From positions 1 through 45,822 of the forward strand of contig DATCRI010000047.1 in the NCBI GenBank assembly GCA_036569045.1: DNA of 45,822 nucleotides. The letters run 5' to 3'. Source of the stretch: Chthoniobacterales bacterium. Its GTDB lineage: Bacteria; Verrucomicrobiota; Verrucomicrobiia; Chthoniobacterales; JAATET01. Shown one piece after another: positions 1-45,822 of this stretch (within the stretch, counting starts at the first letter, position 1; each line of letters starts with the position of its first letter). Position numbers and translations under genes: made by a program. The notes under the pieces are model-generated. The model was not told the DNA's origin and did not search any database. It saw only the letters and a program-made list of their open reading frames with translations.

Positions 1-1033
1 AGGCGTCCGTGATCGAGACGCCGTATTTCAACCCCGCCGGGCCGCCTTCGGAAGGCTGGGCGCCGAGGTGAATGTTGCTCTCGAGCATGGCGCCGATGAT
101 GGCGTTGTCGCTCTCGCGCTGGGCGAGCACGCTTTCCCAGACGAGGTGCTGGCGGAGCGGATCCTTGCCGGAGTTCGCATGGCTGCAATCGATCATGATC
201 GCGTCGGGCATGCCGGCCTTGCGGAGCTTTTCGACGGCGGTAGCGACGTGGTGCGCCTCGTAGTTCGCGCCGTCGCGGCCGCCGCGGAGGACGACGTGAC
301 AATGCGGGTTGCCGGTCGTTTTCACGATGCTCGTGGAGCCATCCTGATCGATGCCGAGGAAGCTGTGCGGCGTGCGCGAGGACTTCATCGCGTCGATCGC
401 CGTCTGCACGCTGCCGTCGGTGCCGTTCTTGAAGCCGACCGGCATGGAGAGACCGCTGGCGAGTTCGCGATGCGTCTGCGACTCCGTCGTGCGGGCGCCG
501 ATGGCGGACCACGAAATGAGATCCGCGATGTATTGCGGAATAATGGGGTCGAGGAATTCGGTGGCGGCGGGCAGGCCGAGCGCGGTGATGTCGAGCAGGA
601 GCTTGCGGGCGAGGGCGAGGCCGTGCGCGAGGTCGCAGGAGTCGTCGAGGTGCGGATCGTTGATGAGGCCCTTCCATCCAACGGTCGTGCGGGGCTTTTC
701 GAAATAGACCCGCATCACGATCTCGTAACGATCGGCGAGTTCCGTGCGCAGGGTGGCGAGGCGGCGGGCGTAGTCCAGGGCGGCCTCGGGATCGTGAATG
801 GAGCAGGGGCCGACGACGACGAGCAGGCGGGAATCCTCGCGCTGGAGAATGCGGCGGGCGGCGTTGCGGCCGGCGAGCACGGTCTGCAGCGAGGCGTCGG
901 AGGCAGGGAGCTGCTCCTTGATCTGCGTGGGCGTAATGAGGCGCGTAAGCCCGCGGACGCGCAAGTTTTCCACGCGATCGGCGGCGCCGGCCTGGGCGCT
1001 GGCGGTCGCATGGTCAGTGAGGCTGGTGGTCAT
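1..1033 (-). CDS. aroG: 3-deoxy-7-phosphoheptulonate (DAHP) synthase, class I, C-terminus cut by window edge
   Basis: Condenses phosphoenolpyruvate with erythrose 4-phosphate, the first step of the shikimate pathway, in the cytoplasm. Translating the minus strand from the ATG at 1033 gives about 344 residues, almost the whole of a roughly 350-residue class I (AroF/G/H) enzyme. GPCSIHD lies at residues 75-81 and [15 protein letters not shown] at 113-127; further on are [15 protein letters not shown] and [10 protein letters not shown], all hallmark active-site segments of this family. The reading frame stays open to base 1, so the stop codon lies outside the window. The gene is divergent from the ABC transporter, with a 115-base gap. 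The symbol stands for the AroF/G/H family; feedback specificity (Phe, Tyr or Trp) cannot be told from what is visible. Confidence 0.96.
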
Positions 1034-1148
1034 AAAAAGCCCGTCACTATTCCGTGGAATCGCGTTTCGCGCAATCCTCCACTTGTAAATCCCCGCCGAC
1101 TGGCAAATTCTTTGCGGGCGGTTTTTAGGCCGTGCTATCGTCCAACCC

Positions 1149-4100
1149 GTGGAAGTCACTGCCAAGGCCCCCCAGAAACCGCTGCACAGCTGGCTCGAGG
1201 GAGTTTTCCGTTTCGTCACCCGCACCCGCACGGGCACCCGGCACCTGTTCCGGCGCCTCATGCGGAAGCCGCGCACGGTTTCCGAGAGCCCGAACCTGCT
1301 GCCGACGCTCATCAAGGTGCTGGCGGCCTTCGCGCGTTCCGAGAGCGAGGTGCTCGAGGAGGAAATCGACTCCAGCCTCGGCTTCCTGCGCTACGACTAT
1401 CCAGACGCGATCTACTCCGAGCTGCGCAAGCTCTTCCGCGACGCGCTCCACGAGCAGCAGGATCTCAACGCCATCGCGCAGAAGCTGGCGAACCAGCTCA
1501 GCGACGACCGCAAGATTCTTCTCGGCGTCCAGCTCTACGATCTCATCTCGAAGGCCGGCCTCAAGCAGGAGCAGGTGATCGCCTACTACTCGTTCATGTC
1601 GCAGCTCGGCATGGCGGCGCAGGCGATCGACATCGTTTACCAGCTCAATGCGAACGAGCAGGGCGACGCGCAGATTTATCAGCAGGGCGCTTCGCCGCTG
1701 GAGGCCGTGAGCTTCGGTGCGCCGGGGAAATCCGACGTGACGGTGAAGGAGTTCCGCGACGACGAGCGCCTGCTCGCCTACCGCTACCACGAGCTCATCA
1801 TCCTCAAGAACATGAGCGGGCGGAACCTCATCGTGCAGGGCCGTCTCCTCAAGCCGAACGACTTCTGCCGCCTCTATCCGGGCCAGCGAATCATCGTCGA
1901 CGAACAGGTCATCGCTCATCAGGAACTCGTCTTCTACTTCAATGCCAAGAAGAACGTCTCGCTGCCCCAGCTTTATGTGGCGGTGAACGATGACGACGAG
2001 GTCCGCCTCGAAAAAAACAAGACCCGCGACAGCTGCCTCGAGGTGACGTTCGGTCTCAAGGTCAAGGTGCGTGCGCTCCGCAATGTGGATGCCGTGCTGA
2101 ATGGCGTGCGCCTCACGTCGGGGACGGTCGTCGATGCCTCGCTCGAAGATCGCATCATTTTCCATGACGACAGCGAGCTCGAGATCGACGATCTCCGCCG
2201 CCGCGCGCGTTCCTACGGCGGGCGTTTTCAGCTCAAGGCCTCGAAGTCCGAATACCTCGTCTCGAACAATCCCGGCCTTCTCAACGAAGGCGATATCCTG
2301 CTCTCGCCCGGCACCGGCGGCGACGTCCTGCTGAAGATTTACTGCGATTACGACCGTAAGGTCGGCCGCGTCGAGGTGCTCCAGGCCGATCGGCCGATTC
2401 TCGTGCGTGGCAACCCCGTGCGCAATTTCACGACGCTCGCCGACGGCGACACCATCCGCGTGGATGCCGGGCAGGTGCTTCGCTGCAACTTCGCCGAGCG
2501 GCTCATCGAGGAGGAGCGAAACATCATCCGCACCATGGAGGTGCGCGACGTCACCTGCCGGTTCCGGAACAACGACATCGCGCTCGACGGCCTGTCTTTC
2601 ACGGTGCAGCGCGGCGAAATGGTCTGCGTGATGGGCGCGAGTGGCTGCGGCAAGAGCACGCTCATGCGCATGCTCTCGGGGCAGTTTCCGCCTTCGCACG
2701 GCGAGTTGCTCTTCAACGGCCGTTCGCTCTATGCGAACTACGAAACGCTGCGTCGCTACGTCACCTACGTGCCGCAGTATGACGCTTTCGACGAGCAGCT
2801 GACCATCGAGGAGAATCTCGATTTCGCTGCCGCGATCCGCACGCCGCATCTGTCCCGGCGCGAGCGCCTGCGTCGGATCGACGGCAAGCTCGCGGAGCTT
2901 GGCCTGAACGAACGCCGCGACAGCGTCGTCGGCAGCGCGCAGAAGAAGACGCTCTCCGGCGGCGAGCGCAAGCGCCTGAACATCGGCCTCGATATGATCA
3001 GTTCGGCGGACATCTTCCTGTTCGACGAGCCGACCTCCGGCCTGTCCTCGAAGGATTCCGAGCACGTCATCGAGATCATTCGCGGCATGTCGCACAACAA
3101 GATCGTGCTCGTGACGATCCACCAGCCGACCTCGCGCATCTTCTCGATGTTTCACAAGGCGCTGCTGCTCGATAAGGGCGGCAAGATCGTCTTCTTCGGC
3201 ACGCCGCACGAGATGCTCCAATACTTCGCCGACGCCGAGCACGTGCAGCACTACGGCACCGCGCTCGGAAAAACCGATGTCGGCGACACGGCGCGGCCCG
3301 AGTTCATCTTCGACGTCATGGAGACGCCGCTGCGCGACCTCTCCGGCGACATCATTTTCGAGGAAAACAGCCGCGGCCAGCTCGTGCCGGCGCGGCGGTA
3401 TTCCCCGGACTACTGGCGCGACAAATACGAGGCCTACCGCCTCGTGAAGGACGTGCGCGCCACGCCCGTCGCCCGGGACCCCGCCGCCGTCACCTCGGTG
3501 AATTCGGCGCCGCCGCCGTTTCAAAAACGCCGCGAGGCCATCCGCTGGCGCGAGGAATGGAGCCAGTTTGCCACGCTTCTCCAGCGCGCCTTCATCAGCA
3601 AATTCCGCAACCGCGCGAATCTCCTCACGACGATCGTTGAGGCGCCGTTGCTCGCATTGCTCATCGGCGCCGTGCTGCGCTACAGCGAAGGCGGCACCTA
3701 CGATTTTGCCTCCGCCTACCACATTCCGACCTACCTGTTTCTTGCGCTCGTGGTCGCGATGTTCCTCGGCCTGACCAATAGCGTCGACGACATCATTCGC
3801 GACCGCGCCATCCTTCTGCGGGAGCGCAATCTCAATGTCCGGCTCGGTTACTACGTCACGGCAAAGGCGCTCACGCTGACGCTGTTTGCGATCATCCAAT
3901 GCGCGGCATTTGTGATCCTCGGGAATTGGCTGCTCTCGGTCCGCGGCATGTTCTGGATCGATTTCGTGGCGATGATCCTCACGGCCGTGAGCGGCATCGC
4001 CATCGGCCTCATCATTTCCGCCATCGTGCCGGAGGGAAAGACCGCCGTGAACATCATCCCGGCGGTGCTCATTCCGCAGATCATCCTTGGTGGTGCGCTC

Positions 4101-4772
4101 ATCAAATACGAGGAGATGAATCGCAACCTCGACTTCGTCTACACGGTGCAGACGTGGTTCACGAATCATCCCGAGAGCGCGCTTCCGCCGCGCAGCGACC
4201 TGCAGGTGCCGTTGATCTGCGAATTCATGCCGATGCGCTGGTCCTACGAAGCGCTCATCTACGCCCAGGCAAAGCTGAACCCGCTCACCCGCCGACAGGA
4301 GCAGATCCAGAGGGAAATTTCGGCCCTCGCCGCGAAGCGCGCCGCCAGCGAAGCCGAGGAGCAGCGTCTCGACGACCTCAAGGAACTGCTCGCGCTCGTC
4401 TCCGGCCTCCAGGGCAAGTCCCCGGGCGAGATCGACCGCGCTCTCGGGATGATCGACCGCGTCATCCACGGCGGCCCCTATGATCCCAAGGCCATCGGCG
4501 CGCACTCCGGCCCGATCACCGCCGAGCAGATCTACGTGAACCAGAAGGTCACCGATCTCGTGTCGAAGGCCGAGATGGAGCAGCTCGATTACCGCCTTGA
4601 TGAAGGGCGCAAAAAGCACCTCAACGTCTTCTTTGGCCCGATCAAGCAATACTTCGGCATTCGCGCCAGCGTTCTGCTCTTCAATACCGGCATCCTCCTC
4701 GTCACGACACTCGCCGGCTTCTTCGCGCTCTATTTCATCCTGCGCTACCAGATTTCCGTGCGCGGACCGTAG
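1149..4772 (+). CDS. TerB-like / FHA-like / ABCG-type ABC transporter fusion protein
   Basis: A 1207-residue protein joining regulatory domains, an ATPase and a membrane domain in one chain. Residues about 55-170 are helical and resemble TerB. Residues about 300-480 look like two beta-rich FHA-like or ring-binding modules. The ATPase has Walker [10 protein letters not shown] (496-504), signature LSGGERKR (602-609) and Walker B IFLFDE (622-627) with EPTSGLSS, the pattern of ABCG/White half-transporters. From about residue 823 an ABC-2 membrane domain follows, with five hydrophobic segments, a charged helical insert and a last segment near the C-terminus. The start is GTG with no evident Shine-Dalgarno sequence; no in-frame ATG precedes conserved sequence. 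The substrate is unknown. In this architecture the domains before the ATPase are usually thought to sense or recruit partners. Confidence 0.9.
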
Positions 4773-8414: not shown

Positions 8415-9671
8415 ATGTCCGCCCTCCGCTCGCTTTCGGCATCGTCCAGATTATCCGACTCTGCGTTTCGCGCGGCGGCGACCCTTTTTGTGGCGGCATT
8501 CCTGGCAATCTCGGCAATCCTGAGTTTTCGACACCAAGGCGGGATCGTTTTTCCGGATGAGCACGAATATTACGAGCTGGCCGAAAACCTTGTAAAATAC
8601 CGCATGCTCACATGGGACGGTATTACGCCGACGGCCGCGCGCCCGCCCGGCTTTGTGTTCTGGCTTGCGATCGGCAAGGCGATTGGCCTTGGATGGAGTG
8701 CGCTGGTCTGGCTGAACGCGCTGCTCGTGACGGCGGGGCTCTGGGTGCTGACCGGCGCCTGGTTTTCGGCCTCGAGACTCTGGGCTGGTCGGGCCGTGGT
8801 GTTTGCCCTGTTGTTCTGTTATCCGGTTTCTCTTTACGTCACTTCCACGCTGTATCCCCAGGCTTTCTGCCTCGCGCTGATCGCGTTCTCGCTGGCGCTG
8901 ATGATGAAAGGCAAAGTCTGGGCCGGGGCCTTGGCAGGCGGGCTCATGGCTTGGTGTGTGCTGGCTGCGCCAATTTACGCGCCATGGGCGGGAATCGCCG
9001 TCCTGATCTCGATTTTTCACTGGCGCTTGCGGGGTTTCGTCTCCGCGGGAACCTTCGTTCTGCTTTTTGCCGTCGTGATCGCGGCGTGGGGCATTCGGAA
9101 TGAGACGGTGCTGGGGAGATTTGTGCCCTTTTCGACCAATAGCGGATTCAATCTCTTGATCGGAAATTGCGAGACCACCCGCCCGAACGCGGGGCTGAAT
9201 ATCGACGTCACAAAATACACGAACGAAGTTCTCGCCCGTAAACTGGGGGAGGCTGATGCCGATGCCTTTTACGCCCGGGCTGCCAGGGAATGGATTGCCC
9301 AAAACCCCGCAGCGGCAGTCTCCCTGTATTTCCAAAAGGTTCTGAACTACTTCAACTTTCGCAACGAGCTCGTTACGGCTTCCGCCGCGTCGCCAGCCCG
9401 CGACGCTGTGATGTTTCTCACGTATTATGCGCTGCTGGCCCTTCTGCTCGCGCGCATTGTCTTCGGGAGAGCAAGCAATCCCCTCGAATGGCGCGATTGG
9501 CTGATCCTGGGAGGCTATCTGGCCTGCGCCCTGTTTACTTCGATCGCAACCACTCGGATTCGTTACCGCATCCCCAACGACATCCTCGCGATGCTCGTCG
9601 CGGCGCCGTTCGTGGCGGATCTGGCCCGGTTCGCGTTCGACCGGACGGCAGCACGGTTTCTTCGGAAATAA
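8415..9671 (+). CDS. Membrane glycosyltransferase, GT39/ArnT-like
   Basis: Encodes 418 residues from the chosen ATG; an in-frame GTG at 8358 would add 19 residues, but the ATG fits the membrane topology better. The first hydrophobic helix is followed by a loop with PDEHEYYELAENL and TAARPPGF, the acidic loop and Arg-Pro-Pro-Gly segment typical of polyprenyl-phosphate-sugar dependent (GT-C fold) transferases. About nine more hydrophobic segments follow. It would move a sugar from a polyprenyl phosphate carrier to a glycan or protein on the periplasmic side. It is divergent from the exosortase gene and sits 27 bases before a WecG/TagA glycosyltransferase gene, so the two are probably co-transcribed. 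Confidence 0.8.
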   Translation: MSALRSLSASSRLSDSAFRAAATLFVAAFLAISAILSFRHQGGIVFPDEHEYYELAENLVKYRMLTWDGITPTAARPPGFVFWLAIGKAIGLGWSALVWLNALLVTAGLWVLTGAWFSASRLWAGRAVVFALLFCYPVSLYVTSTLYPQAFCLALIAFSLALMMKGKVWAGALAGGLMAWCVLAAPIYAPWAGIAVLISIFHWRLRGFVSAGTFVLLFAVVIAAWGIRNETVLGRFVPFSTNSGFNLLIGNCETTRPNAGLNIDVTKYTNEVLARKLGEADADAFYARAAREWIAQNPAAAVSLYFQKVLNYFNFRNELVTASAASPARDAVMFLTYYALLALLLARIVFGRASNPLEWRDWLILGGYLACALFTSIATTRIRYRIPNDILAMLVAAPFVADLARFAFDRTAARFLRK

Positions 9672-9698: not shown

Positions 9699-10466
9699 AT
9701 GACTCCACAGCCAGATTTCCGTGAAAGAGTCGAATGGCTGGGGCCCGTGCGATGTCACGACATTTCCCGGGAGGAATTGATCCGGGAACTGGTCCGCTCC
9801 GGGGATCGCGGGGCGCCGCCGCGCTTATTCTTCAACCTCAACGCGCATGCGCTGAATCTGGCCCTGAAAAACTCCGCGTTTGCGGCGGCGTTGAATCGCG
9901 CGGAGGTGACGTTCTGCGACGGCTTCGGCGTGCTTTTGCTGGCTCGCATTTTCGGAGATGGGCGGCTGCGCCACAGAATGACGCCGCCGGATTTCGTGCA
10001 AGAGATTTACAGACGTTTCCACGAAGACGGGAAACGGATTTTCCTGGTGGGCGACGAGCCCGCAAACGTGGAAACCTACGCCCGGAGCGTGGAGGCGAAA
10101 TTTCCGAAGCTGATTGCCGGCTGGCACGACGGATTCTTTGAACCGGGAAGCTCCGCGGAGAGCGCCCTGATCGAAAAGATCCGGGCGGAGAAGCCGCACC
10201 TGCTTTTACTGGGGATGGGAATGCCCCGGCAGGAGCTGTGGGCGGACGTCCACCAAGAGCGGCTCTTTTGCAAAGGCATCCTGACGGTGGGTGCGCTGTT
10301 TTCGTGGGGAATATCCACTCGTCGGCGCGGGCCGCGCTGGGCTACCGACCGCGGACTCGAATGGTTGTTTCGTCTCTTTCTGGAGCCGAGCCGGGTGTGG
10401 AAGCGCTATTTGATCGGGCTTCCGGAGGTGGTCTTCCGGTTGTTGCTAGCATCCCGTCGCGATTGA
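9699..10466 (+). CDS. WecG/TagA/CpsF family glycosyltransferase
   Basis: Encodes 255 residues, the normal length for GT26 enzymes. Recognisable segments are FFNLNAHALNLALKN, VTFCDGFGVLLLAR, RMTPPDFVQEI, FLVGDEPANVE and LLLGMGMPRQELW, in the order seen in TagA and WecG. Family members add the second sugar (ManNAc or ManNAcA) to an undecaprenyl-diphosphate-linked primer at the cytoplasmic face of the membrane. The C-terminal helix RGLEWLFRLFLEPSRVWKRY is probably the membrane-associating appendage known from this family. It follows the GT39-like gene closely and ends 29 bases before the convergent GT4 gene. No matching initiating phosphoglycosyltransferase (WcaJ/WbaP/WecA type) is visible in the window. 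Confidence 0.92.
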   Translation: MTPQPDFRERVEWLGPVRCHDISREELIRELVRSGDRGAPPRLFFNLNAHALNLALKNSAFAAALNRAEVTFCDGFGVLLLARIFGDGRLRHRMTPPDFVQEIYRRFHEDGKRIFLVGDEPANVETYARSVEAKFPKLIAGWHDGFFEPGSSAESALIEKIRAEKPHLLLLGMGMPRQELWADVHQERLFCKGILTVGALFSWGISTRRRGPRWATDRGLEWLFRLFLEPSRVWKRYLIGLPEVVFRLLLASRRD

Positions 10467-10495
10467 GAACCGGAGGCATGGTCCGAGGCGCCCGT

Positions 10496-11782
10496 TCAAA
10501 CGGTTTTCAGATTTCGGGCCAGGGAATCCAGAAACGCCGGCAGCGAATATCGCTCCAGAAAACTTTGGCGAAGTTGCGCGAAGTCGGAAAAATCCATCGC
10601 CGCTTTCAACTGCCTGGAAAGATCCTCCGAATTTTCGGGAATCGATAGCGACGGAAGATCCCGTCGAAGAATGTCTGAAGTTCCGCGCCATTTGGTGGCG
10701 ATCACCGGCAAGCCGAATGAAAGGGCTTCCACCATTACGAGTCCGAAGGTTTCGGGCTGAAAAAACGTTGGAAAAATCAGGGCGTCACATTCGGCAAGGA
10801 GGACGGCTTTCCGCTCGGAGTCGACATGCCCGACATACATAAAAGGGGAGTGGTTGCTCACGTTTTCGAGGGAGTTCGCCCGTCGGTGAAACTCGGCTCG
10901 CTCCGACTCATTCTGGAACTTTCCTGCAATGACCATTCGCACGCGAAGATTCGCTCGTTGTCGAACCAGGTCTTGATTGACCGTTTCAACGGCGTCCATG
11001 GCGACGAAGAGCCCTTTTTCCCGCGTGCAGTGGGAGAGGAAAAGAAGATCAAAGGTGGGCGCGTCTCGTGAAACGGACTGGGGGTGGCCTTCGGACGACG
11101 GGATTGCCTTTTCCTGGCGATCCCTGAGTCGGGCAAGCCGCCTTTCGAGCACCAACGGGAAACGATCGCCGCATTGATCGGGAATCCCGTTGGGAACGAC
11201 CACCGTTTGTTTCGGAGCGAGAGCCTCGGCGTCGGACACGTTGTAGTCCGTGAGTGCGATGGAGAGATCGCAGCCTCGATACGACAAACGCGTGAGGTAT
11301 CGAGCGAAAGGGTCGAAGATTCCGAAAAGAATGGGCGGCGGACAGGTTTTGTATCCTTCCCCGCCGGGGCTTTCCACGAGCGATCTCGCCCAGAAGCCAA
11401 CGCCAAAAGCATGCCAGTGAAGGACGACCTTCTTGAAGAAAGGCCGAAGGGCGGCAAGGACCAGCCAGTCTCTGATGATCGCTGAAGCTTTCGCCGGGGC
11501 GGGCACGTAATACAGCGTGTCGATTCCGAATTCCTTTCGAAGTTGCAGTGCCTCCCGACAGGCGTTGCACAGGCGTTTGAGCTTCGAGCCACGCAGGCTT
11601 CCGATGTCCTCCAGATCGTCGGAAAGCTGAACGTTGACGTGGTAACATTCGATTCCGTATTCGGCGGCAGGCACTGCGCTCGGCAACTTTTGATCGCCGC
11701 CAAAACCCTCGAGCATCAGCTGCACCATGTAGCTCTGGCCGTGATGCGGCGGGGGCGTGTGGGCGAAGACCAATAGCTTCAT
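10496..11782 (-). CDS. Glycosyltransferase family 4
   Basis: Encodes 428 residues from the ATG at 11782, which overlaps the stop of the upstream GT9 gene (ATGA). The start region MKLLVFAHTPPPHHGQSYM has the glycine-loop pattern of GT4 N-terminal domains. In the C-terminal domain LLFLSHCTREKGLFVAMDAV is the donor-binding strand, and the segment from PETFGLVMVEALSFGLPVIA to the GTSDIL that follows is the E-x7-E nucleotide-sugar motif of retaining GT-B enzymes. It probably adds one sugar to the lipid-linked repeat unit at the cytoplasmic face of the membrane. It is the last gene of the nine-gene leftward operon. Donor and acceptor cannot be told. Confidence 0.88.
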   Translation of the reverse strand: MKLLVFAHTPPPHHGQSYMVQLMLEGFGGDQKLPSAVPAAEYGIECYHVNVQLSDDLEDIGSLRGSKLKRLCNACREALQLRKEFGIDTLYYVPAPAKASAIIRDWLVLAALRPFFKKVVLHWHAFGVGFWARSLVESPGGEGYKTCPPPILFGIFDPFARYLTRLSYRGCDLSIALTDYNVSDAEALAPKQTVVVPNGIPDQCGDRFPLVLERRLARLRDRQEKAIPSSEGHPQSVSRDAPTFDLLFLSHCTREKGLFVAMDAVETVNQDLVRQRANLRVRMVIAGKFQNESERAEFHRRANSLENVSNHSPFMYVGHVDSERKAVLLAECDALIFPTFFQPETFGLVMVEALSFGLPVIATKWRGTSDILRRDLPSLSIPENSEDLSRQLKAAMDFSDFAQLRQSFLERYSLPAFLDSLARNLKTV

Positions 11783-12804
11783 GATTTGAAGGGCTTGTTT
11801 ATCCATTCGATCGCCATGCGAGCAACGTCTTCCACGCTCCAGGATTTCATGCAGCCGAGAGGGAATTCTGGATTGGTGCAGTGATTGAGCGGTCCGCTGG
11901 AGGGATCACAGCCGATGCACGGGAGGGATTCCTTTCGGAGAAGGAGAAAGCGATCTTTGTTCCAATAGGGATTCCAGATTGGATGACTCGGACCGCAGAA
12001 AATCAGAGACGGCACTCCCAAAGCGCTCGCCAGGTGCATGGGGCCGGAATTGTTGCCAATGAAGACGCGAGAGGCCGCGAGACTGCTCACGAGACTTGAA
12101 AGATCGGGAGTGCGGATAACTTCGACAGTCGAACCCGCAAAGTCGGGAAGGGGGATTTCGCTTTCAAGCCAACCCACCCGGAACGATCGGGATAGCTGTT
12201 TCGCGAGGAGAAAAAATCTCTCCGGAAGCCATCGTTGGTATTCCAGACTTGCTCCTGGATGGATCAGAAAATCGAAGCTCCTAGCGGCCGATTCCTTCAG
12301 AAGATGAGAGACATCTGGAGGTGGTGGGAGGTCTGGCCAGGGGCGCCCGAGATTGGCCGCTAGTCGACACCCGAGAGCCCACGCTCGTTCGGCGGCGGGC
12401 AGGTTATCCTCATAGGAAATCAGATCGGTCACCGAACCCGGAACCTTGAGGAAATGGGGTCGACTCCCGATTCGATGAGGAATTCCGGAAGCTAGGGCGA
12501 GAAGATGGGCGGTATTCCCCTGATCGTGAGGAATAAGGCAATGGGTCGCTCCAATCCGACGGACCCGCGAGACGAGGGGAAGGATTTTAAGCGGATTCTT
12601 CCAAGCGGCATTGAACTCGGGCCGGGAAATGATCTTGCGAGTCACTCCGGGCAAATTCGAATCGTAAAGCGGCTCCGCGAGGGGAGTTGTCCACAGCTCG
12701 ATCGAGGAGAACATCTGCGATCGTGCCAACTCCTGAACAAGCGGCAGAAATACCACGTTGTCCCCGAGTTGAATGACCTTGAAAATCAGAAGGCGAGATC
12801 CCAT
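11779..12804 (-). CDS. Glycosyltransferase family 9 (heptosyltransferase-like)
   Basis: Encodes 341 residues. The N-terminus LLIFKVIQLGDNVVFLPLV and the C-terminal DFLIHPGASLEYQRWLPERF and GNNSGPMHLASALGVPSLIF are the standard ADP-heptose:LPS heptosyltransferase motifs. A Cys-rich stretch near the C-terminus (CIGCD, then HCTN and GCMKS) resembles the CxxC pattern seen in some GT9 members. It may use heptose or another sugar in exopolysaccharide or LPS assembly. The gene lies 12 bases after the GT2 gene and overlaps the following GT4 gene by 4 bases, so it is well inside the operon. Confidence 0.88.
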   Translation of the reverse strand: MGSRLLIFKVIQLGDNVVFLPLVQELARSQMFSSIELWTTPLAEPLYDSNLPGVTRKIISRPEFNAAWKNPLKILPLVSRVRRIGATHCLIPHDQGNTAHLLALASGIPHRIGSRPHFLKVPGSVTDLISYEDNLPAAERAWALGCRLAANLGRPWPDLPPPPDVSHLLKESAARSFDFLIHPGASLEYQRWLPERFFLLAKQLSRSFRVGWLESEIPLPDFAGSTVEVIRTPDLSSLVSSLAASRVFIGNNSGPMHLASALGVPSLIFCGPSHPIWNPYWNKDRFLLLRKESLPCIGCDPSSGPLNHCTNPEFPLGCMKSWSVEDVARMAIEWINKPFKS

Positions 12805-12816
12805 GCGGCACTCAGA

Positions 12817-13731
12817 TTAGTTCCGGACGGACGGACGTTTGACGGATCGGCGCAAAGTTCGCAACGCCCCGCGCCCGAAAACGGCCGAGATCGCCCACAT
12901 TACGAAAAATCGAGCATAGGGCCACAATGCGAGAACGGAACCCCATCCCCATCCCCAGTGCTTTCGAAAAAAGTGCGCCCGGGTAGGCCAATACAGCAGG
13001 GACTTGGGGCTGCGCATCCCGGCGAAAAGCGTCCGAAACGGAAGGGGGCTTTCTGTCCAGCTTCCAAGCGTTGCGGTTTCGTTCGCTTCGTTGTCGCAGA
13101 TCAAAAAATTGAGAATCACGCTTTTGAAACCCGCAGCGCGAATGCGAAGGGCATAGTCGGCATCCGCCCAGTTATGAAAAAGTCGGGGATCCATTTCACC
13201 GACGGCTTCGACGATGTGCCGAGGAAAGGCCACGCAGTTTCCTCCGAACGAATCAATTTTGACGATTGATGAGGAGTCCGGGGCGACTTGGCAGAGTCCC
13301 CAAGCGGTCCTGATCCATCCTCCATAAAAAAATCCGGATGGAGCCACCGAAAGGGCTGAGGCGACACATCGATTCTTAAGCGCATACGCACGAAGCGCCT
13401 GGAGAACACCCGGGCGCGGGCGGCAATCATTGTTGAGCCAGATCAGACAAGGCGTTCCCGGGTCGGCAATCCTCATGCCCAGGCGCATCGCCCCCCCCCA
13501 CCACAGGTTTCCATCTCCCGACACAATTTTTATCTGAGGCCAGATTTTCTCCACCTCCTCGACGGTCTTGTCGCTCGATCCGTCATCGACGAGGATGATT
13601 TCGGCCCAGTCGAGGACGCCCTCCCTGGCAAGATTATCCAGACAGCGGAGGGTGATGTCTTTTCGGTCATACGTGGCGATAACAATGGACGCCTCATAGG
13701 GGAAATTTTTAAGATCCACTTTTGACGGCAA
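12817..13731 (-). CDS. Glycosyltransferase family 2
   Basis: Encodes about 304 residues. SIVIATYDRKDITLRCLDNL followed by EIILVDDGSSDKTVEEV is the GT-A fold nucleotide-binding start, and IWLNNDCRPRPG carries a DxD-like metal site. The C-terminal third includes hydrophobic helices that may lie on the membrane. No ATG is available near the N-terminus: candidate starts are TTG at 13731, overlapping the upstream methyltransferase gene by 23 bases, or GTG at 13719. A run of nine G in the coding strand (+ strand C at 13491-13499) encodes Trp-Gly-Gly-Ala and could slip. The sugar specificity is unknown. Confidence 0.88.
   Translation of the reverse strand: MPSKVDLKNFPYEASIVIATYDRKDITLRCLDNLAREGVLDWAEIILVDDGSSDKTVEEVEKIWPQIKIVSGDGNLWWGGAMRLGMRIADPGTPCLIWLNNDCRPRPGVLQALRAYALKNRCVASALSVAPSGFFYGGWIRTAWGLCQVAPDSSSIVKIDSFGGNCVAFPRHIVEAVGEMDPRLFHNWADADYALRIRAAGFKSVILNFLICDNEANETATLGSWTESPLPFRTLFAGMRSPKSLLYWPTRAHFFRKHWGWGWGSVLALWPYARFFVMWAISAVFGRGALRTLRRSVKRPSVRN
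13491..13499. repeat. Homopolymer tract C9 (G9 on coding strand) in GT2 gene
   Basis: Nine consecutive C on the + strand inside the GT2 coding sequence, about 80 codons from its start. Gain or loss of one base would truncate the enzyme early, so this is a possible contingency tract. Confidence 0.9.
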
Positions 13732-41635: not shown

Positions 41636-41654
41636 GCCTCATCCGCGCGGCGGG

Positions 41655-41927
41655 ACGACGCGCGGCGCCACCCCGGCGACTTCCGTCGTTCCGCCCGCGA
41701 CCTGTTCCGTTTGCCCTCCGACATGTCCCGTCCCGCAAACGACCAAAGTCGTCTCCTCGACGCCCCGTTCCGCCCGACTCACGACCCAAGTCGCCGCCTC
41801 GCCGGGAGAGGTCGCCGGCCTCGCGACATCCGTCGTTTGCCCTGCGCCCCTGATCGTCGAAGCAACGACGCGCGTCGTTTCGCAAACGACCCTGGTCGTC
41901 TGGCAAATCAGCCAGAACATCAGCAAG
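41655..41927. repeat. 21-bp tandem repeat array, 13 units, with palindrome in most units
   Basis: Units start at 41655 and every 21 bases to 41907 without slipping. Each has the form (A/G)CGAC-N4-GTCGT/C followed by a 7-base spacer. Clear palindromic units: 41676, 41739, 41781, 41823, 41865 (ACGACGCGCGTCGT, fully palindromic) and 41886 (ACGACCCTGGTCGT). Units at 41760, 41802, 41844 and 41907 are degenerate. Since 21 is a multiple of three, all frames read as heptads on both strands; for example, the + strand gives DQSRLLD, DPSRRLA, DARRFAN, DPGRLAN. Confidence 0.88.
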
Positions 41928-41955: not shown

Positions 41956-41990
41956 AAACGAGCGGAGCTGTGAAGCCCCGCTCGTTTTGA
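41956..41990. terminator. Bidirectional terminator between the repeat array and the cas9 region
   Basis: A 10-bp perfect stem (AAACGAGCGG with CCGCTCGTTT), a 12-base loop and T-rich sequence on both sides (CTCGTTTTGA on the + strand; CTCGTTTGTTTTT on the - strand). It would insulate the cas9 locus from the upstream gene. Confidence 0.8.
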
Positions 41991-42121
41991 AAGAAAACGC
42001 TTTTGAGCACGATGTATCCGCCTGGCGGATAGGGAAGCGGCTTGCGCTATCTAACTTTGTCTTGAATCCGAAGGAAGCTACGCACATCGGACTGAACTGG
42101 AGCAAGGGAAAATAAAAATAC

Positions 42122-42156: not shown

Positions 42157-42304
42157 GCTTAAGCGACGCTGCCTTGGCCGATCAAAACCTGTCCAAAGGG
42201 TTCCCGGGGCCAAGGCAGCGCTCTGAGCGCGAAAGCATTCTAAATGCGCTTTGCCTATTGAGATCCGTGTCACGAGGAGCAGTGTCACTGCTCCTCGTGA
42301 TTTT
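42157..42304 (+). ncRNA. Candidate tracrRNA upstream of cas9
   Basis: About 148 bases between a promoter-like AT-rich block and a terminator, immediately before cas9. The predicted structure from the sequence is: a 13-bp perfect hairpin (42167-42179 with 42208-42220), a 5-bp hairpin GCGCT-CTG-AGCGC (42218-42230, competing at its edge with the first), an imperfect hairpin GCATT-CTA-AATGC (42235-42247), and the terminator stem (42270-42300). The segment 42167-42188 ends in GATCAAAAC, so its complement would begin GTTTTGATCGG; type II repeats often begin GTTTTA/G, which makes this the best anti-repeat candidate. No CRISPR repeat is available in the window to prove pairing, so the role is inferred from position and structure. 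Confidence 0.6.
42270..42304 (+). terminator. Terminator hairpin of the candidate tracrRNA, 6 bases before the cas9 start
   Basis: A 12-bp perfect stem (TCACGAGGAGCA with TGCTCCTCGTGA), a 7-base loop GTGTCAC that can itself add pairs, then TTTT. The next start codon (42311) follows after only six bases. Confidence 0.9.
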
Positions 42305-42310
42305 CGAGCT

Positions 42311-45300
42311 ATGAACAACTCCCTCCACTTTGCCTTCGACATTGGCCATAGCAGCATCGGCTGGGCTGTGCTCCGTAGCCTCGATGCCCACGATGCGAAC
42401 CTTCTTGGTTGCGGCGCGGTGATTTTCCAAGCGGACGATTGTCTTGCCTCCGAACGGCGAGGCTTTCGTCGCCAGCGTCGGCACGTCCGGGCCACGCGGT
42501 TGCGCATTGCTCGATTGAAAAGCCTTCTGTCGCATCTCGGAGTTCTTTCCGAAACGGAGCTGAATGCGGTCACTTCGTCGAGTCCGTGGCTGCTCGCTGC
42601 ACGCGTGCTGCGGGGCGGGCCTTCGCTTTCGTGGCGGGAACTCTGGGATGTGCTGCGCTGGTATGCGCATAACCGCGGCTACGATGGCAACAAGGCCTGG
42701 AGCCGGCAGGAAATCGACGCGGCGGCGGAAAGGGAGGATGCCGAGAAGGTGCAGAATGCGCGCACGCTACTAGACCAATACGGCACACGCTCCATGGCCG
42801 AGACCTGGTGTGCGGTGTGCGGGCTCGATCCGCTGGGAACGAGGGCGTCGTGCGCGCTGCCCGGCGACAAGCGGCCGAAGGCGCTCAATGCAGCCTTTCC
42901 GCGTGAGATCGTGGAGGGGGAGGTCGCCCGCGTGCTTCGGTCACACATCGGCGTGCTGCCTGGAGTCGACGAGTCGCTTGTCTCGGCCGTGATGACGGAC
43001 TGGACGGCGTTGGCCTGTCCGGCGATCCGCTTGCCACTGCGGTATCGAGGCGGCCTGCTTTTCGGGCAACTCGTTCCGCGGTTCGAGAATCGAATCATTG
43101 CCCGCTGCCCCATTGCCTACGAGGCCATCTATCGATCCGTGCTCGACGATACGGGCGACATCGCCGCGGCAAAGGCGGCGGCGGACAAGCAGGCGAAGGT
43201 GCCGGCCGCGAATTGCCCCGAGTTTTTTCGCTATCGGTGGGCCATGCAGGTGGCAAACGTGCTCCTCACCACGCCCGGCGGCATGCGGCGACTCACCGCC
43301 GAGCAGCGCCGGGCTCTCGACGAGACGATGCGCGACCGCGGGGGAATGACTCGCGGGGAATTCAAGGACGCCGTGCGGGCGCTCACCGGCGGAGCGCCCG
43401 ATAATCTCGACCAGATGCTTCTTCACGAGGACGCCGACAAGGCGCTCGTGCTCGATCCCGTCCGGCGCGCGATGCGGCGCAAGGAGGTGGCGTCGCTGCT
43501 CGACACGCAGCCAGAGCGCCTGCTCAAGCGGGCGGCCGGCCAAATGCGGCGAGGAAAACGGCTCACGCTGGGTGCGATCCGCGTCTGGGCGGGAGAGGAC
43601 GGAGGGGCCTTCGACGCGGAGGTGGAGCGTCAGCTCGATGCGGCCAATACGAAACGCGGGCGCAAGACCGCGCCGCCGACGCGCGAGGGACTGCTTTCCA
43701 CGGAGCTGCGGGTGGAGTTTCCCGGCGGCCGCGCGCCGCACAGCCGCGAGGTGATGCGTGCCGTGGCCGATTTTGTTTTTGCGGGCGAGGGGCATCCTGC
43801 CGAGGAAGGCGGCCCGCTTTTCCGCAGCGAAGCCATTCGCAAGGCTCAGCTCCAGCGGGCCATCGACGAGCAGACGAACAACCATCTCGTGCGCCACCGT
43901 CTGCGCATTCTGGAGCGGCTCCATCGCGATCTGCTCGCGACGTATGCGAAGGGTGAAGACGTCACCCGGGTGACGATCGAGGTGAATCGGGATCTGCGAG
44001 AACTCTCTGGAAAAAAGGCGAAGGAGATCGCGCAGGACATCGGCTTGCGCCTCAGCAATTTCAAGAGCGTTGCCGCGAAGTTGGAGCGGGAGCTGGTCGG
44101 GAAGGGGATCGCGATCACCCCCGGGCTCATTCGCAAGGCGCGCGTGGCCGAGGATCTGGGCTGGACGTGCCCCTACACCGGACAAACCTACGACGTGCTC
44201 GACCTCGTGCATCGTCGCGTGGACAAGGACCACATCATTCCCCGCAGCGTGCGGCCGAGCGACGGACTCGACGCACTCGTCATTACCTTCAGCGAGGTGA
44301 ACCGCATGAAAGGCAAGCGCACGGCCGTGAAGTTCATCGAGGAAGACGGCGGAAAAGCGGTCGAGGGCCGGCCGCAACTGACGCTGCGCACGCCGGGTCT
44401 CTACTCGGAGGCGATCAGGAAGCTGGAAACCTTCAAAGGCCATGAGGATGACAAACGCCGGAAGCGGAATCGTCGGCGTCTGCTCGAGCTGCGCGACTAC
44501 GTCGAAAAGGAGTTCGTGCCACGCGACCTCACGCAAACCTCGCAGCTCGTGCGCCTGGGCGCGCAGATTCTGGAGCGGGAATACGAGGGGCGGGAGATGA
44601 AACCGGTGATCACTTCGCTGCCGGGAAGCGTGACGGGTGCGGTGCGGCGGTCATGGGATTTGCTCGGCTGTCTCGGCGCGGCGAATCCTCTGGTGATGGA
44701 CCCCGCGACCAACGAACCGCGCACGAAGACGGAGATTCGCGATATCACGCATCTTCATCACGCGCTCGATGCCTGCACGCTCGCCTTCACCTCGCTCGTG
44801 CTGCCCGGAAAAGGACGCGACGGCAGCGCGTGGGAATTGCTGGTGCGGAGGAGATTGAATGCCGAGCAGCAGACGAAGGCTCGGGAGTTATTCAAGAACT
44901 GCGTGGAATTCGAGAAGGATGGCACGCTACGCCTCATCGATCTTCCGAAGGCGTTCAAGGAACAGATTCGACAGCGCATTGCCGAGCGGCGGGTCGTGCA
45001 GCATCTGCCCTCCGACATGTCCGGCCTGCGCGCGGAACTCAATGCGTGGCGAGTTGTCAACTCGATGCCGGATGAAGATGGAAAACTTCTCCTTCGCCAG
45101 CGCATTCGTCAGCCCGACGGCAGGCGTCCGTTCAAAGAGCGCCGTGAGAAGCCTGAAAAGCTCGTTGGCCTGCGTCCCGGGAAGCTGCAAAAGCTCAAAG
45201 GCGCACTCGTGATCGGCGATAACTACGGCCTCGCACTGGACCCCGAGCCAACAATCATTCCTTTTCACAAGGTCTGGAATCGTCTGCGGGAGCTTCGAGA

Positions 45301-45571
45301 AAAGAACGGCGGCAAGCCGGTGAGAGTGCTGCGCAACGGAATGCTCATCGAGGTGCCGTCCGGTCGTTACGCTGGAGCTTGGAAGATATTTTCCGTCAAG
45401 AACAACACCTCGGGAATCGCGGTCGATATGGCGCGACCGGATGTCGTGCGTCCCATGAACAAGACGGAAAATAGTCGCATCAACGTGCTCCTCGCCTCGC
45501 TGCTTCGAGACGGGATGAAACTTCAACCTGTATCGCTCTGCGGAATTGCTCCGAAATCTGAGGCGGTGTAA
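42311..45571 (+). CDS. cas9: Compact divergent Cas9 (type II, II-C-like) RNA-guided nuclease
   Basis: Encodes 1086 residues, in the compact size range. RuvC-I FAFDIGHSSIGWAVL carries Asp10. An Arg-rich bridge helix covers about 49-70 (ERRGFRRQRRHVRATRLRIA), and the conserved WYAHNRGYDGN is at 117-127. RuvC-II VTRVTIEVNRDL carries Glu557. The HNH domain has CPYTGQTYDVLDL and DKDHIIPRS with His641, then Asn664 in SEVNRMKGKRTA. RuvC-III THLHHALDACTLAF carries His817 and Asp820. The C-terminal 200 residues should be the PAM-interacting part. All catalytic residues are intact, so it should cut both DNA strands. The HNH sequence differs from the better-known II-C enzymes (EIDHALPFSR type). The ATG at 42311 gives the standard N-terminus; an upstream TTG lies inside the ncRNA. 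No Shine-Dalgarno sequence is evident. No cas1, cas2 or array is in the window. Confidence 0.95.
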   Translation: MNNSLHFAFDIGHSSIGWAVLRSLDAHDANLLGCGAVIFQADDCLASERRGFRRQRRHVRATRLRIARLKSLLSHLGVLSETELNAVTSSSPWLLAARVLRGGPSLSWRELWDVLRWYAHNRGYDGNKAWSRQEIDAAAEREDAEKVQNARTLLDQYGTRSMAETWCAVCGLDPLGTRASCALPGDKRPKALNAAFPREIVEGEVARVLRSHIGVLPGVDESLVSAVMTDWTALACPAIRLPLRYRGGLLFGQLVPRFENRIIARCPIAYEAIYRSVLDDTGDIAAAKAAADKQAKVPAANCPEFFRYRWAMQVANVLLTTPGGMRRLTAEQRRALDETMRDRGGMTRGEFKDAVRALTGGAPDNLDQMLLHEDADKALVLDPVRRAMRRKEVASLLDTQPERLLKRAAGQMRRGKRLTLGAIRVWAGEDGGAFDAEVERQLDAANTKRGRKTAPPTREGLLSTELRVEFPGGRAPHSREVMRAVADFVFAGEGHPAEEGGPLFRSEAIRKAQLQRAIDEQTNNHLVRHRLRILERLHRDLLATYAKGEDVTRVTIEVNRDLRELSGKKAKEIAQDIGLRLSNFKSVAAKLERELVGKGIAITPGLIRKARVAEDLGWTCPYTGQTYDVLDLVHRRVDKDHIIPRSVRPSDGLDALVITFSEVNRMKGKRTAVKFIEEDGGKAVEGRPQLTLRTPGLYSEAIRKLETFKGHEDDKRRKRNRRRLLELRDYVEKEFVPRDLTQTSQLVRLGAQILEREYEGREMKPVITSLPGSVTGAVRRSWDLLGCLGAANPLVMDPATNEPRTKTEIRDITHLHHALDACTLAFTSLVLPGKGRDGSAWELLVRRRLNAEQQTKARELFKNCVEFEKDGTLRLIDLPKAFKEQIRQRIAERRVVQHLPSDMSGLRAELNAWRVVNSMPDEDGKLLLRQRIRQPDGRRPFKERREKPEKLVGLRPGKLQKLKGALVIGDNYGLALDPEPTIIPFHKVWNRLRELREKNGGKPVRVLRNGMLIEVPSGRYAGAWKIFSVKNNTSGIAVDMARPDVVRPMNKTENSRINVLLASLLRDGMKLQPVSLCGIAPKSEAV

Positions 45572-45581
45572 CTTATGGCCG

Positions 45582-45818
45582 ATGAAACTCCGGTTGGATT
45601 TGCTGAAGGAGCTGACCGCTCAGGACATCCTGGAGGAAGCGGCGGCGAACCAGCACCGTTACAAAGCCGAGCCCACTTTCTCGAAAACTGGGACTGGGCA
45701 TCTCTCACCGCGATCAATCGAGGACTCTGTGCGCGAGGCGGCGCGCAGCACGGCCTTGGGCGAGAAACTCACGAAGCGGTTGCCCGAGAGTGGGAACAAA
45801 AGCGGCGGGAAGAGCTAA
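45582..45818 (+). CDS. Small uncharacterised protein directly downstream of cas9
   Basis: Encodes 78 residues starting 10 bases after the cas9 stop. It is highly charged, with a helical first half (LDLLKELTAQDILEEAAA) and a basic tail (GNKSGGKS). Third-position G+C is high, as in true genes here, which supports this frame. A different frame, open from an ATG at 45575 to the window end, has poorer codon bias and a Gly-rich composition, so I prefer this one. It matches no Cas protein I recognise (not Cas1, Cas2, Csn2 or Cas4). Possible co-transcription with cas9 makes it worth noting; no function can be given. Confidence 0.55.
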   Translation: MKLRLDLLKELTAQDILEEAAANQHRYKAEPTFSKTGTGHLSPRSIEDSVREAARSTALGEKLTKRLPESGNKSGGKS

Positions 45819-45822
45819 GCCT

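What the first reader, a model, noticed from the sequence alone, without database searches (positions are those of the whole stretch)
42311..45571. Compact, divergent Cas9 with complete catalytic set but no adaptation genes in view
The sequence shows all RuvC (D10, E557, H817/D820) and HNH (H641, N664) residues in 1086 aa. The HNH core (VDKDHIIPRS...LDALVITFSEVNRMKGKRT) is unlike the IDHALPFS/IEHILPFSRT pattern of the well-known II-C proteins, so it may belong to a poorly described branch. Cas1/Cas2 are not upstream; the upstream neighbours are a repeat array and housekeeping genes. Either the array and cas1/cas2 follow the right edge, or this is a stand-alone effector.
Basis: partly seen in the sequence, partly recalled or inferred. 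Interest (0 to 1): 0.8.

Follow-up and report, generated by a model that had tools for sequence, protein, structure and literature searches.

The report
Complete type II-C CRISPR-Cas9 locus, split
The window ends inside an ordinary CRISPR-Cas9 immune locus of a Verrucomicrobia bacterium: the "missing" spacer-acquisition genes and repeat array lie on the next contig, so this is a divergent new member of a known system and not a stand-alone Cas9.

Summary
The Cas9 is real and its catalytic residues are as described, but it is not a stand-alone effector. The window is one whole contig, and Cas9 stops 251 nt before its end. Another contig of the same genome (4,779 nt), read in reverse, overlaps the window's end by 11 nt, continues an open frame across the seam, and carries cas1, cas2 and four 36-nt repeats with three 30-nt spacers. 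A same-genus genome has the same order unbroken. A tracrRNA with its own terminator lies on the minus strand just upstream of cas9; its place is conserved in some 45 relatives and its helices covary. This is the three-gene type II-C layout. Cas9 is about 20-24% identical to solved II-C enzymes and sits in a well-supported Verrucomicrobiota clade (35-76% identity) that probably includes Akkermansia muciniphila, whose II-C locus is published as canonical. Verdict: new member of a known kind. Two side leads are worth more than the finding: an uncharacterised overlapping gene pair directly upstream of cas1 in loci of three CRISPR kinds, and a possible crRNA-like regulatory element in the cas9 leader. 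Neither is proven.

The parts
42311..45571 (+). cas9, 1086 aa, RuvC D10/E557/H817/D820 and HNH H641/N664 intact
41956..42079 (-). tracrRNA (5' end not mapped): anti-repeat at 42054-42069, hairpins, intrinsic terminator 41987-41956
   Evidence: same position in about 45 relatives; 13 of 23 pairs with two-sided changes
45575..45822 (+). start of OrfX (207 aa once joined to contig C1), between cas9 and cas1; runs off the window
45582..45818 (+). OrfA, 78 aa, overlaps OrfX in another frame
   Evidence: codon-position variability
45812..45822 (+). GAGCTAAGCCT, 11-nt exact overlap with the end of contig G000:C1 (reverse strand), which carries the rest of OrfX, cas1, cas2 and the array
42224..42300 (+). 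possible crRNA-like element: 24-nt guide, repeat-like GCTTTGCCTATTGAGATCC (42248-42266), then a GC-rich hairpin just before cas9
   Evidence: hypothesis only

Best explanation
This is the effector end of a complete type II-C CRISPR-Cas locus of a Verrucomicrobiota bacterium. Order: tracrRNA (minus strand) - cas9 - OrfA/OrfX - cas1 - cas2 - array of 4 repeats and 3 spacers. The contig break falls inside OrfX. Inferred mechanism, as in other II-C systems: Cas1-Cas2 insert 30-bp spacers; the array, read opposite to cas9, gives crRNAs that begin GCTTTGCC...; these pair with the tracrRNA anti-repeat; Cas9 with the dual RNA binds matching DNA beside a PAM and cuts it with HNH and RuvC. Shown here: gene content, gene order, catalytic residues, array, tracrRNA and its covariation. 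Inferred: expression, RNA processing, PAM and cleavage.
For: cas1 (type II profile TIGR03639, 148 bits) and cas2 on contig C1 of the same genome. Array at C1:2876-3109. The window's end and C1 (reverse) share 11 nt and one open frame crosses the seam; the same-genus genome G001 has cas9-OrfX-cas1-cas2-array on one contig, OrfX 57% identical along all 207 aa. Relatives with an intact flank have cas9-cas1-cas2, mostly followed by an array with the shared repeat end GGATTCAAGGCAAAGC or a close variant. tracrRNA. Cas9 over its whole length: Foldseek against SaCas9, Nme1Cas9, ThermoCas9 and AceCas9 at E about 1e-18. II-C is defined by the three-gene operon, with the array transcribed opposite to it (PMC3936727).
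Against: The join rests on 11 nt, a shared frame and synteny; no read evidence was available. The genome is in 91 contigs. The array is short (3 spacers) and none of the three spacer stretches searched (24-25 nt) matched viral contigs, so recent activity is not shown. The Cas9 model is poor (pTM 0.41).
Confidence: 0.95

Rival explanations
1. Stand-alone Cas9 (isolated effector without adaptation genes), using guides from elsewhere or serving another role.
For: No cas1, cas2 or array in the 45.8-kb window.
Against: The window is a whole contig ending 251 nt after cas9; the genome's only detected cas1 and cas2 sit on the contig whose end joins it; relatives have the operon intact.
Confidence: 0.02
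2. A degenerate or decaying II-C locus: genes still present but immunity no longer used.
For: Only 3 spacers, without viral matches. The same-genus relative G001 has a Cas9 without its first ~106 residues and no tracrRNA upstream; other relatives keep fragments: G138 (cas9 N-terminus), G033 (cas1-cas2 without cas9).
Against: In the window cas9, tracrRNA, cas1, cas2 and all four 36-nt repeats are intact.
Confidence: 0.15
3. A compact type II-D (Cas9d) or another new subtype.
For: Weak NCBIfam Cas9d match, 100.6 bits; a long-stemmed clade of its own.
Against: Far below the Cas9d cut-off of 375 bits while TIGR01865 passes; the published Cas9d is 747 aa (PMC11706934, abstract) against 1086 here; full II-C operon.
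Confidence: 0.03

Closest known systems
Akkermansia muciniphila type II-C locus (probable: genomes G322/G235, loci L083/L089)
   Same: Same Cas9 clade at about 35-38% identity, same cas9-cas1-cas2 order, same tracrRNA position and anti-repeat; published as canonical II-C (PMC8278651, PMC9241678)
   Different: No OrfA/OrfX between cas9 and cas1. The identification of G322 as A. muciniphila rests on its 2,664,102-bp single contig and my memory of that genome's size.
Cerasicoccus II-C loci (L020, L021)
   Same: cas9-cas1-cas2-array, repeat end GGATTCAAGGCAAAGC, tracrRNA upstream on the opposite strand; Cas9 41-44% identical
   Different: cas1 follows cas9 directly, no OrfA/OrfX
Nme1Cas9 and ThermoCas9 (solved II-C enzymes)
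   Same: Same domain order, catalytic residues and three-gene operon type
   Different: About 19-24% identity over the aligned parts; separate branch in the tree
CreR crRNA-like autoregulators (type I and V-A, PMC12737573)
   Same: The cas9 leader holds a repeat-like stretch with an upstream guide and a hairpin; 8 guide bases match the upstream region
   Different: Not reported for type II in that review; significance here is marginal (shuffle frequency 0.017)

Membership tests
Type II-C CRISPR-Cas | Cas9 with RuvC and HNH nuclease motifs | tested here: met
Type II-C CRISPR-Cas | cas1 and cas2 in one operon with cas9, in the three-gene layout | tested here: met
   across a contig join supported by 11 nt, a shared frame and G001 synteny; an extra OrfA/OrfX lies between cas9 and cas1
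Type II-C CRISPR-Cas | no csn2 or cas4 in the operon | tested here: met
   The only extra gene, OrfX, matches no Csn2 or Cas4 family
Type II-C CRISPR-Cas | CRISPR array beside the operon, transcribed opposite to it | tested here: met
   4 repeats of 36 nt; direction inferred from the orientation of the tracrRNA anti-repeat, not measured
Type II-C CRISPR-Cas | tracrRNA complementary to the repeat | tested here: met
Type II-C CRISPR-Cas | RNA-guided, PAM-dependent cleavage | not testable with these tools
   needs biochemistry; no protospacer found
Type II-D (Cas9d) | Cas9d profile match above cut-off | tested here: not met
   100.6 bits against cut-off 375
Stand-alone Cas9 | no adaptation genes or array in the genome | tested here: not met
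CreR-like crRNA-like regulator | repeat-like element whose guide partly matches the cas promoter | tested here: inconclusive
   window: 8-nt seed match, shuffle 0.017; L021: 9-nt seed and 18 of 24, shuffle 0.001; absent in the other relatives scanned except L093, which looks like a duplication

The most novel reading that the evidence does not exclude
The OrfA/OrfX overlapping gene pair between cas9 and cas1 is an unrecognised accessory module tied to CRISPR adaptation or to keeping cas1 loci (for example a toxin-antitoxin-like guard). It has no match in Pfam, NCBIfam, PADLOC or PHROGs, yet it lies directly upstream of cas1 in five genomes with three kinds of cas1: II-C (window genome, G001, G033 without cas9), I-E (G088, where cas6e would be expected) and a Cas4/Cas1-type gene (G475).
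Probability: 0.2. Interest if true: 0.65.

Novelty: new member of a known kind. Interest (0 to 1): 0.33.

Why it matters
It closes the question raised: the lone Cas9 is a contig-edge artefact, and the system is a full II-C locus. It also gives a coherent Verrucomicrobiota Cas9 branch with a mapped tracrRNA and repeat, far from the enzymes studied so far, which is what is needed to rebuild and test its guide RNA. If the OrfA/OrfX link to cas1 is functional, it would add an unknown gene family to CRISPR adaptation or locus maintenance.

Tried and rejected
The Cas9 fold from 7 sequences was poor (pTM 0.41); it is used only for whole-length Foldseek matches, not for the PAM-interacting domain. The OrfX fold from one sequence was useless (pTM 0.27). 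Rfam at gathering thresholds gave only a tRNA in the window. Three spacer searches in viral contigs found nothing, and a 48-repeat array of a relative against phages gave one non-significant match (E = 1), so no PAM could be inferred. No Cas9 relative on plasmids; no OrfX relative in viral contigs. A first tracrRNA idea, with cas9-sense transcription, was dropped because only the minus-strand reading puts the anti-repeat before a terminator. The repeat-like stretch before cas9 in L093 was rejected as a crRNA-like case: it follows a partial copy of the cas9 start and shows no seed match. The library held no paper on Verrucomicrobia Cas9 as such; two key classification papers were not held.

Full report
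Observation. The ORF at 42311-45571 is a genuine full-length Cas9 of 1086 aa. It passes TIGR01865 (185.7 bits, cut-off 100) and has Pfam HNH_4 and RuvC_III.

The missing genes. The window is the whole of contig C47 of a 3.43-Mb, 91-contig genome. Searching that genome for Cas1 and Cas2 finds one of each, both on the minus strand of C1, a 4,779-nt contig. The reverse strand of C1 starts with GAGCTAAGCCT, the last 11 nt of the window (visible), and the reading frame open at the window's end continues through the seam to a 207-aa product, OrfX. In the same-genus genome G001 the order cas9-OrfX-cas1-cas2-array is on one contig, and OrfX is 57% identical along its whole length, across the seam. Cas1 matches the type II profile TIGR03639 (148 bits, cut-off 120). 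After cas2 come four copies of a 36-nt repeat, GCTTTGCCTTGAATCCACTTTCAGGCCCGGCAAACT, with three 30-nt spacers. The "stand-alone effector" reading is therefore rejected.

tracrRNA. On the minus strand upstream of cas9 lies an anti-repeat (+ strand ACTTTGTCTTGAATCC, 42054-42069), then hairpins and an intrinsic terminator (41987-41956). In about 45 related loci the anti-repeat sits at the same place, mostly 40-140 nt before cas9. In a 10-sequence alignment the consensus structure has 13 of 23 pairs with two-sided changes and 90% of cells paired, against 76% in shuffles and 41-54% when the pairing is slid. The structure was derived from the same alignment, so the slid control leans in its favour. 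Repeat and anti-repeat pair strongly (-19.6 kcal/mol).

Placement. Full-length relatives occur across the phylum at 35-76% identity; Cas9 of any kind is above the family cut-off in 77 of 388 phylum genomes. In a quick maximum-likelihood tree the window protein falls in a 23-member Verrucomicrobiota clade (SH-aLRT 100, stem 1.45), separate from the branch with Nme1Cas9, ThermoCas9 (9ar4) and 21dz. The PDB rows are partial and the root is for drawing only, so the deeper order is unsure. Identity to the solved enzymes is 19-24% over the aligned parts. Two members, L083 and L089, probably come from Akkermansia muciniphila; this rests on a 2,664,102-bp single contig and my memory. Two papers describe its II-C locus, one calling the structure canonical (PMC8278651, PMC9241678). 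The Cas9 model is weak (pTM 0.41), but Foldseek aligns it along its length to SaCas9, Nme1Cas9, ThermoCas9 and AceCas9.

Mechanism. PMC3936727 defines II-C by a three-gene operon with the array transcribed opposite to it; both hold here, the second by inference from the tracrRNA. The best explanation is ordinary II-C adaptive immunity. Expression, PAM and cleavage are inferred. Spacer stretches of 24-25 nt had no exact match in viral contigs.

Side lead 1: OrfA/OrfX. Two overlapping frames start 7 nt apart just after cas9. Codon-position variability shows the OrfA frame constrained in the first ~120 nt and the OrfX frame from about 135 nt on. No library names them, apart from a sub-threshold SH3-like hint. 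Homologues occur in 22 of 213 genomes of the order and 55 of 384 of the class. Most checked neighbourhoods have no cas gene, but five have OrfX directly upstream of cas1: the window genome, G001, G033 (OrfX-cas1-cas2, no cas9), G088 (cas7e-cas5e-OrfX-cas1e) and G475 (OrfX, then a broken Cas4/Cas1-type cas1). The neighbour check used a few Cas1 queries, so five is a lower bound. The three II-C cases may share descent. Whether this is function or a passenger module in a permissive site is open; in G451 the cas9-cas1 gap of about 725 nt seems to hold a Phd/VapC-like pair on the other strand (read by eye).

Side lead 2: a crRNA-like element. Between tracrRNA and cas9 the window has a repeat-like stretch (42248-42266) followed by a hairpin. 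The eight guide bases next to it recur upstream, ending at about 42144 (1.7% of shuffled guides do as well). Cerasicoccus maritimus (L021) has a clearer case: 18 of 24 bases with a 9-nt seed against a TATAAA-containing stretch (0.1% of shuffles). No sigma-70 promoter was called in the window region, and nearly all other relatives lack the element. The review PMC12737573 places such CreR RNAs in types I and V-A.

Noticed in passing
window 45575-45822 and L024 (contig C1) 4393-4779 (-): OrfA/OrfX, an overlapping gene pair of unknown family between cas9 and cas1; homologues lie directly upstream of cas1 in five genomes with three kinds of cas1, and elsewhere in non-cas contexts.
   Followed up: partly
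window 42224-42300; L021 7879-7950: Repeat-like stretch plus hairpin just before cas9, with a guide partly matching the upstream region; possible crRNA-like autoregulator in a type II-C system.
   Followed up: partly
L107 (G088:C152) 601-4504: Type I-E operon cas7e-cas5e-OrfX-cas1e with OrfX where cas6e would be expected; repeats follow near the contig end.
   Followed up: partly
L091 5310-6030 (G451): The gap between cas9 and cas1 appears to encode a Phd/VapC-like toxin-antitoxin pair on the opposite strand (read by eye).
   Followed up: no
L025 (G001) about 10373-13507: The same-genus cas9 lacks its first ~106 residues, with a DNA polymerase I-like gene directly upstream and no tracrRNA in view; deletion or misassembly.
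   Followed up: no
L030 (G138), reverse strand, near 9276-9647; L108 (G033): Locus remnants: a cas9 N-terminal fragment with a tracrRNA anti-repeat in G138; OrfX-cas1-cas2 with a single repeat remnant and no cas9 in G033.
   Followed up: partly
window 41650-41905: Imperfect repeats with start-to-start spacings in multiples of 21 nt and GACNNNNGTC-like palindromes; not a CRISPR array. Either a heptad-repeat frame on the minus strand or an intergenic repeat.
   Followed up: partly
L093 1767-2065 (reverse strand of the fetched locus): Tracr anti-repeat followed by a partial copy of the cas9 start and then a second repeat-like stretch before the intact cas9: looks like a local duplication.
   Followed up: no
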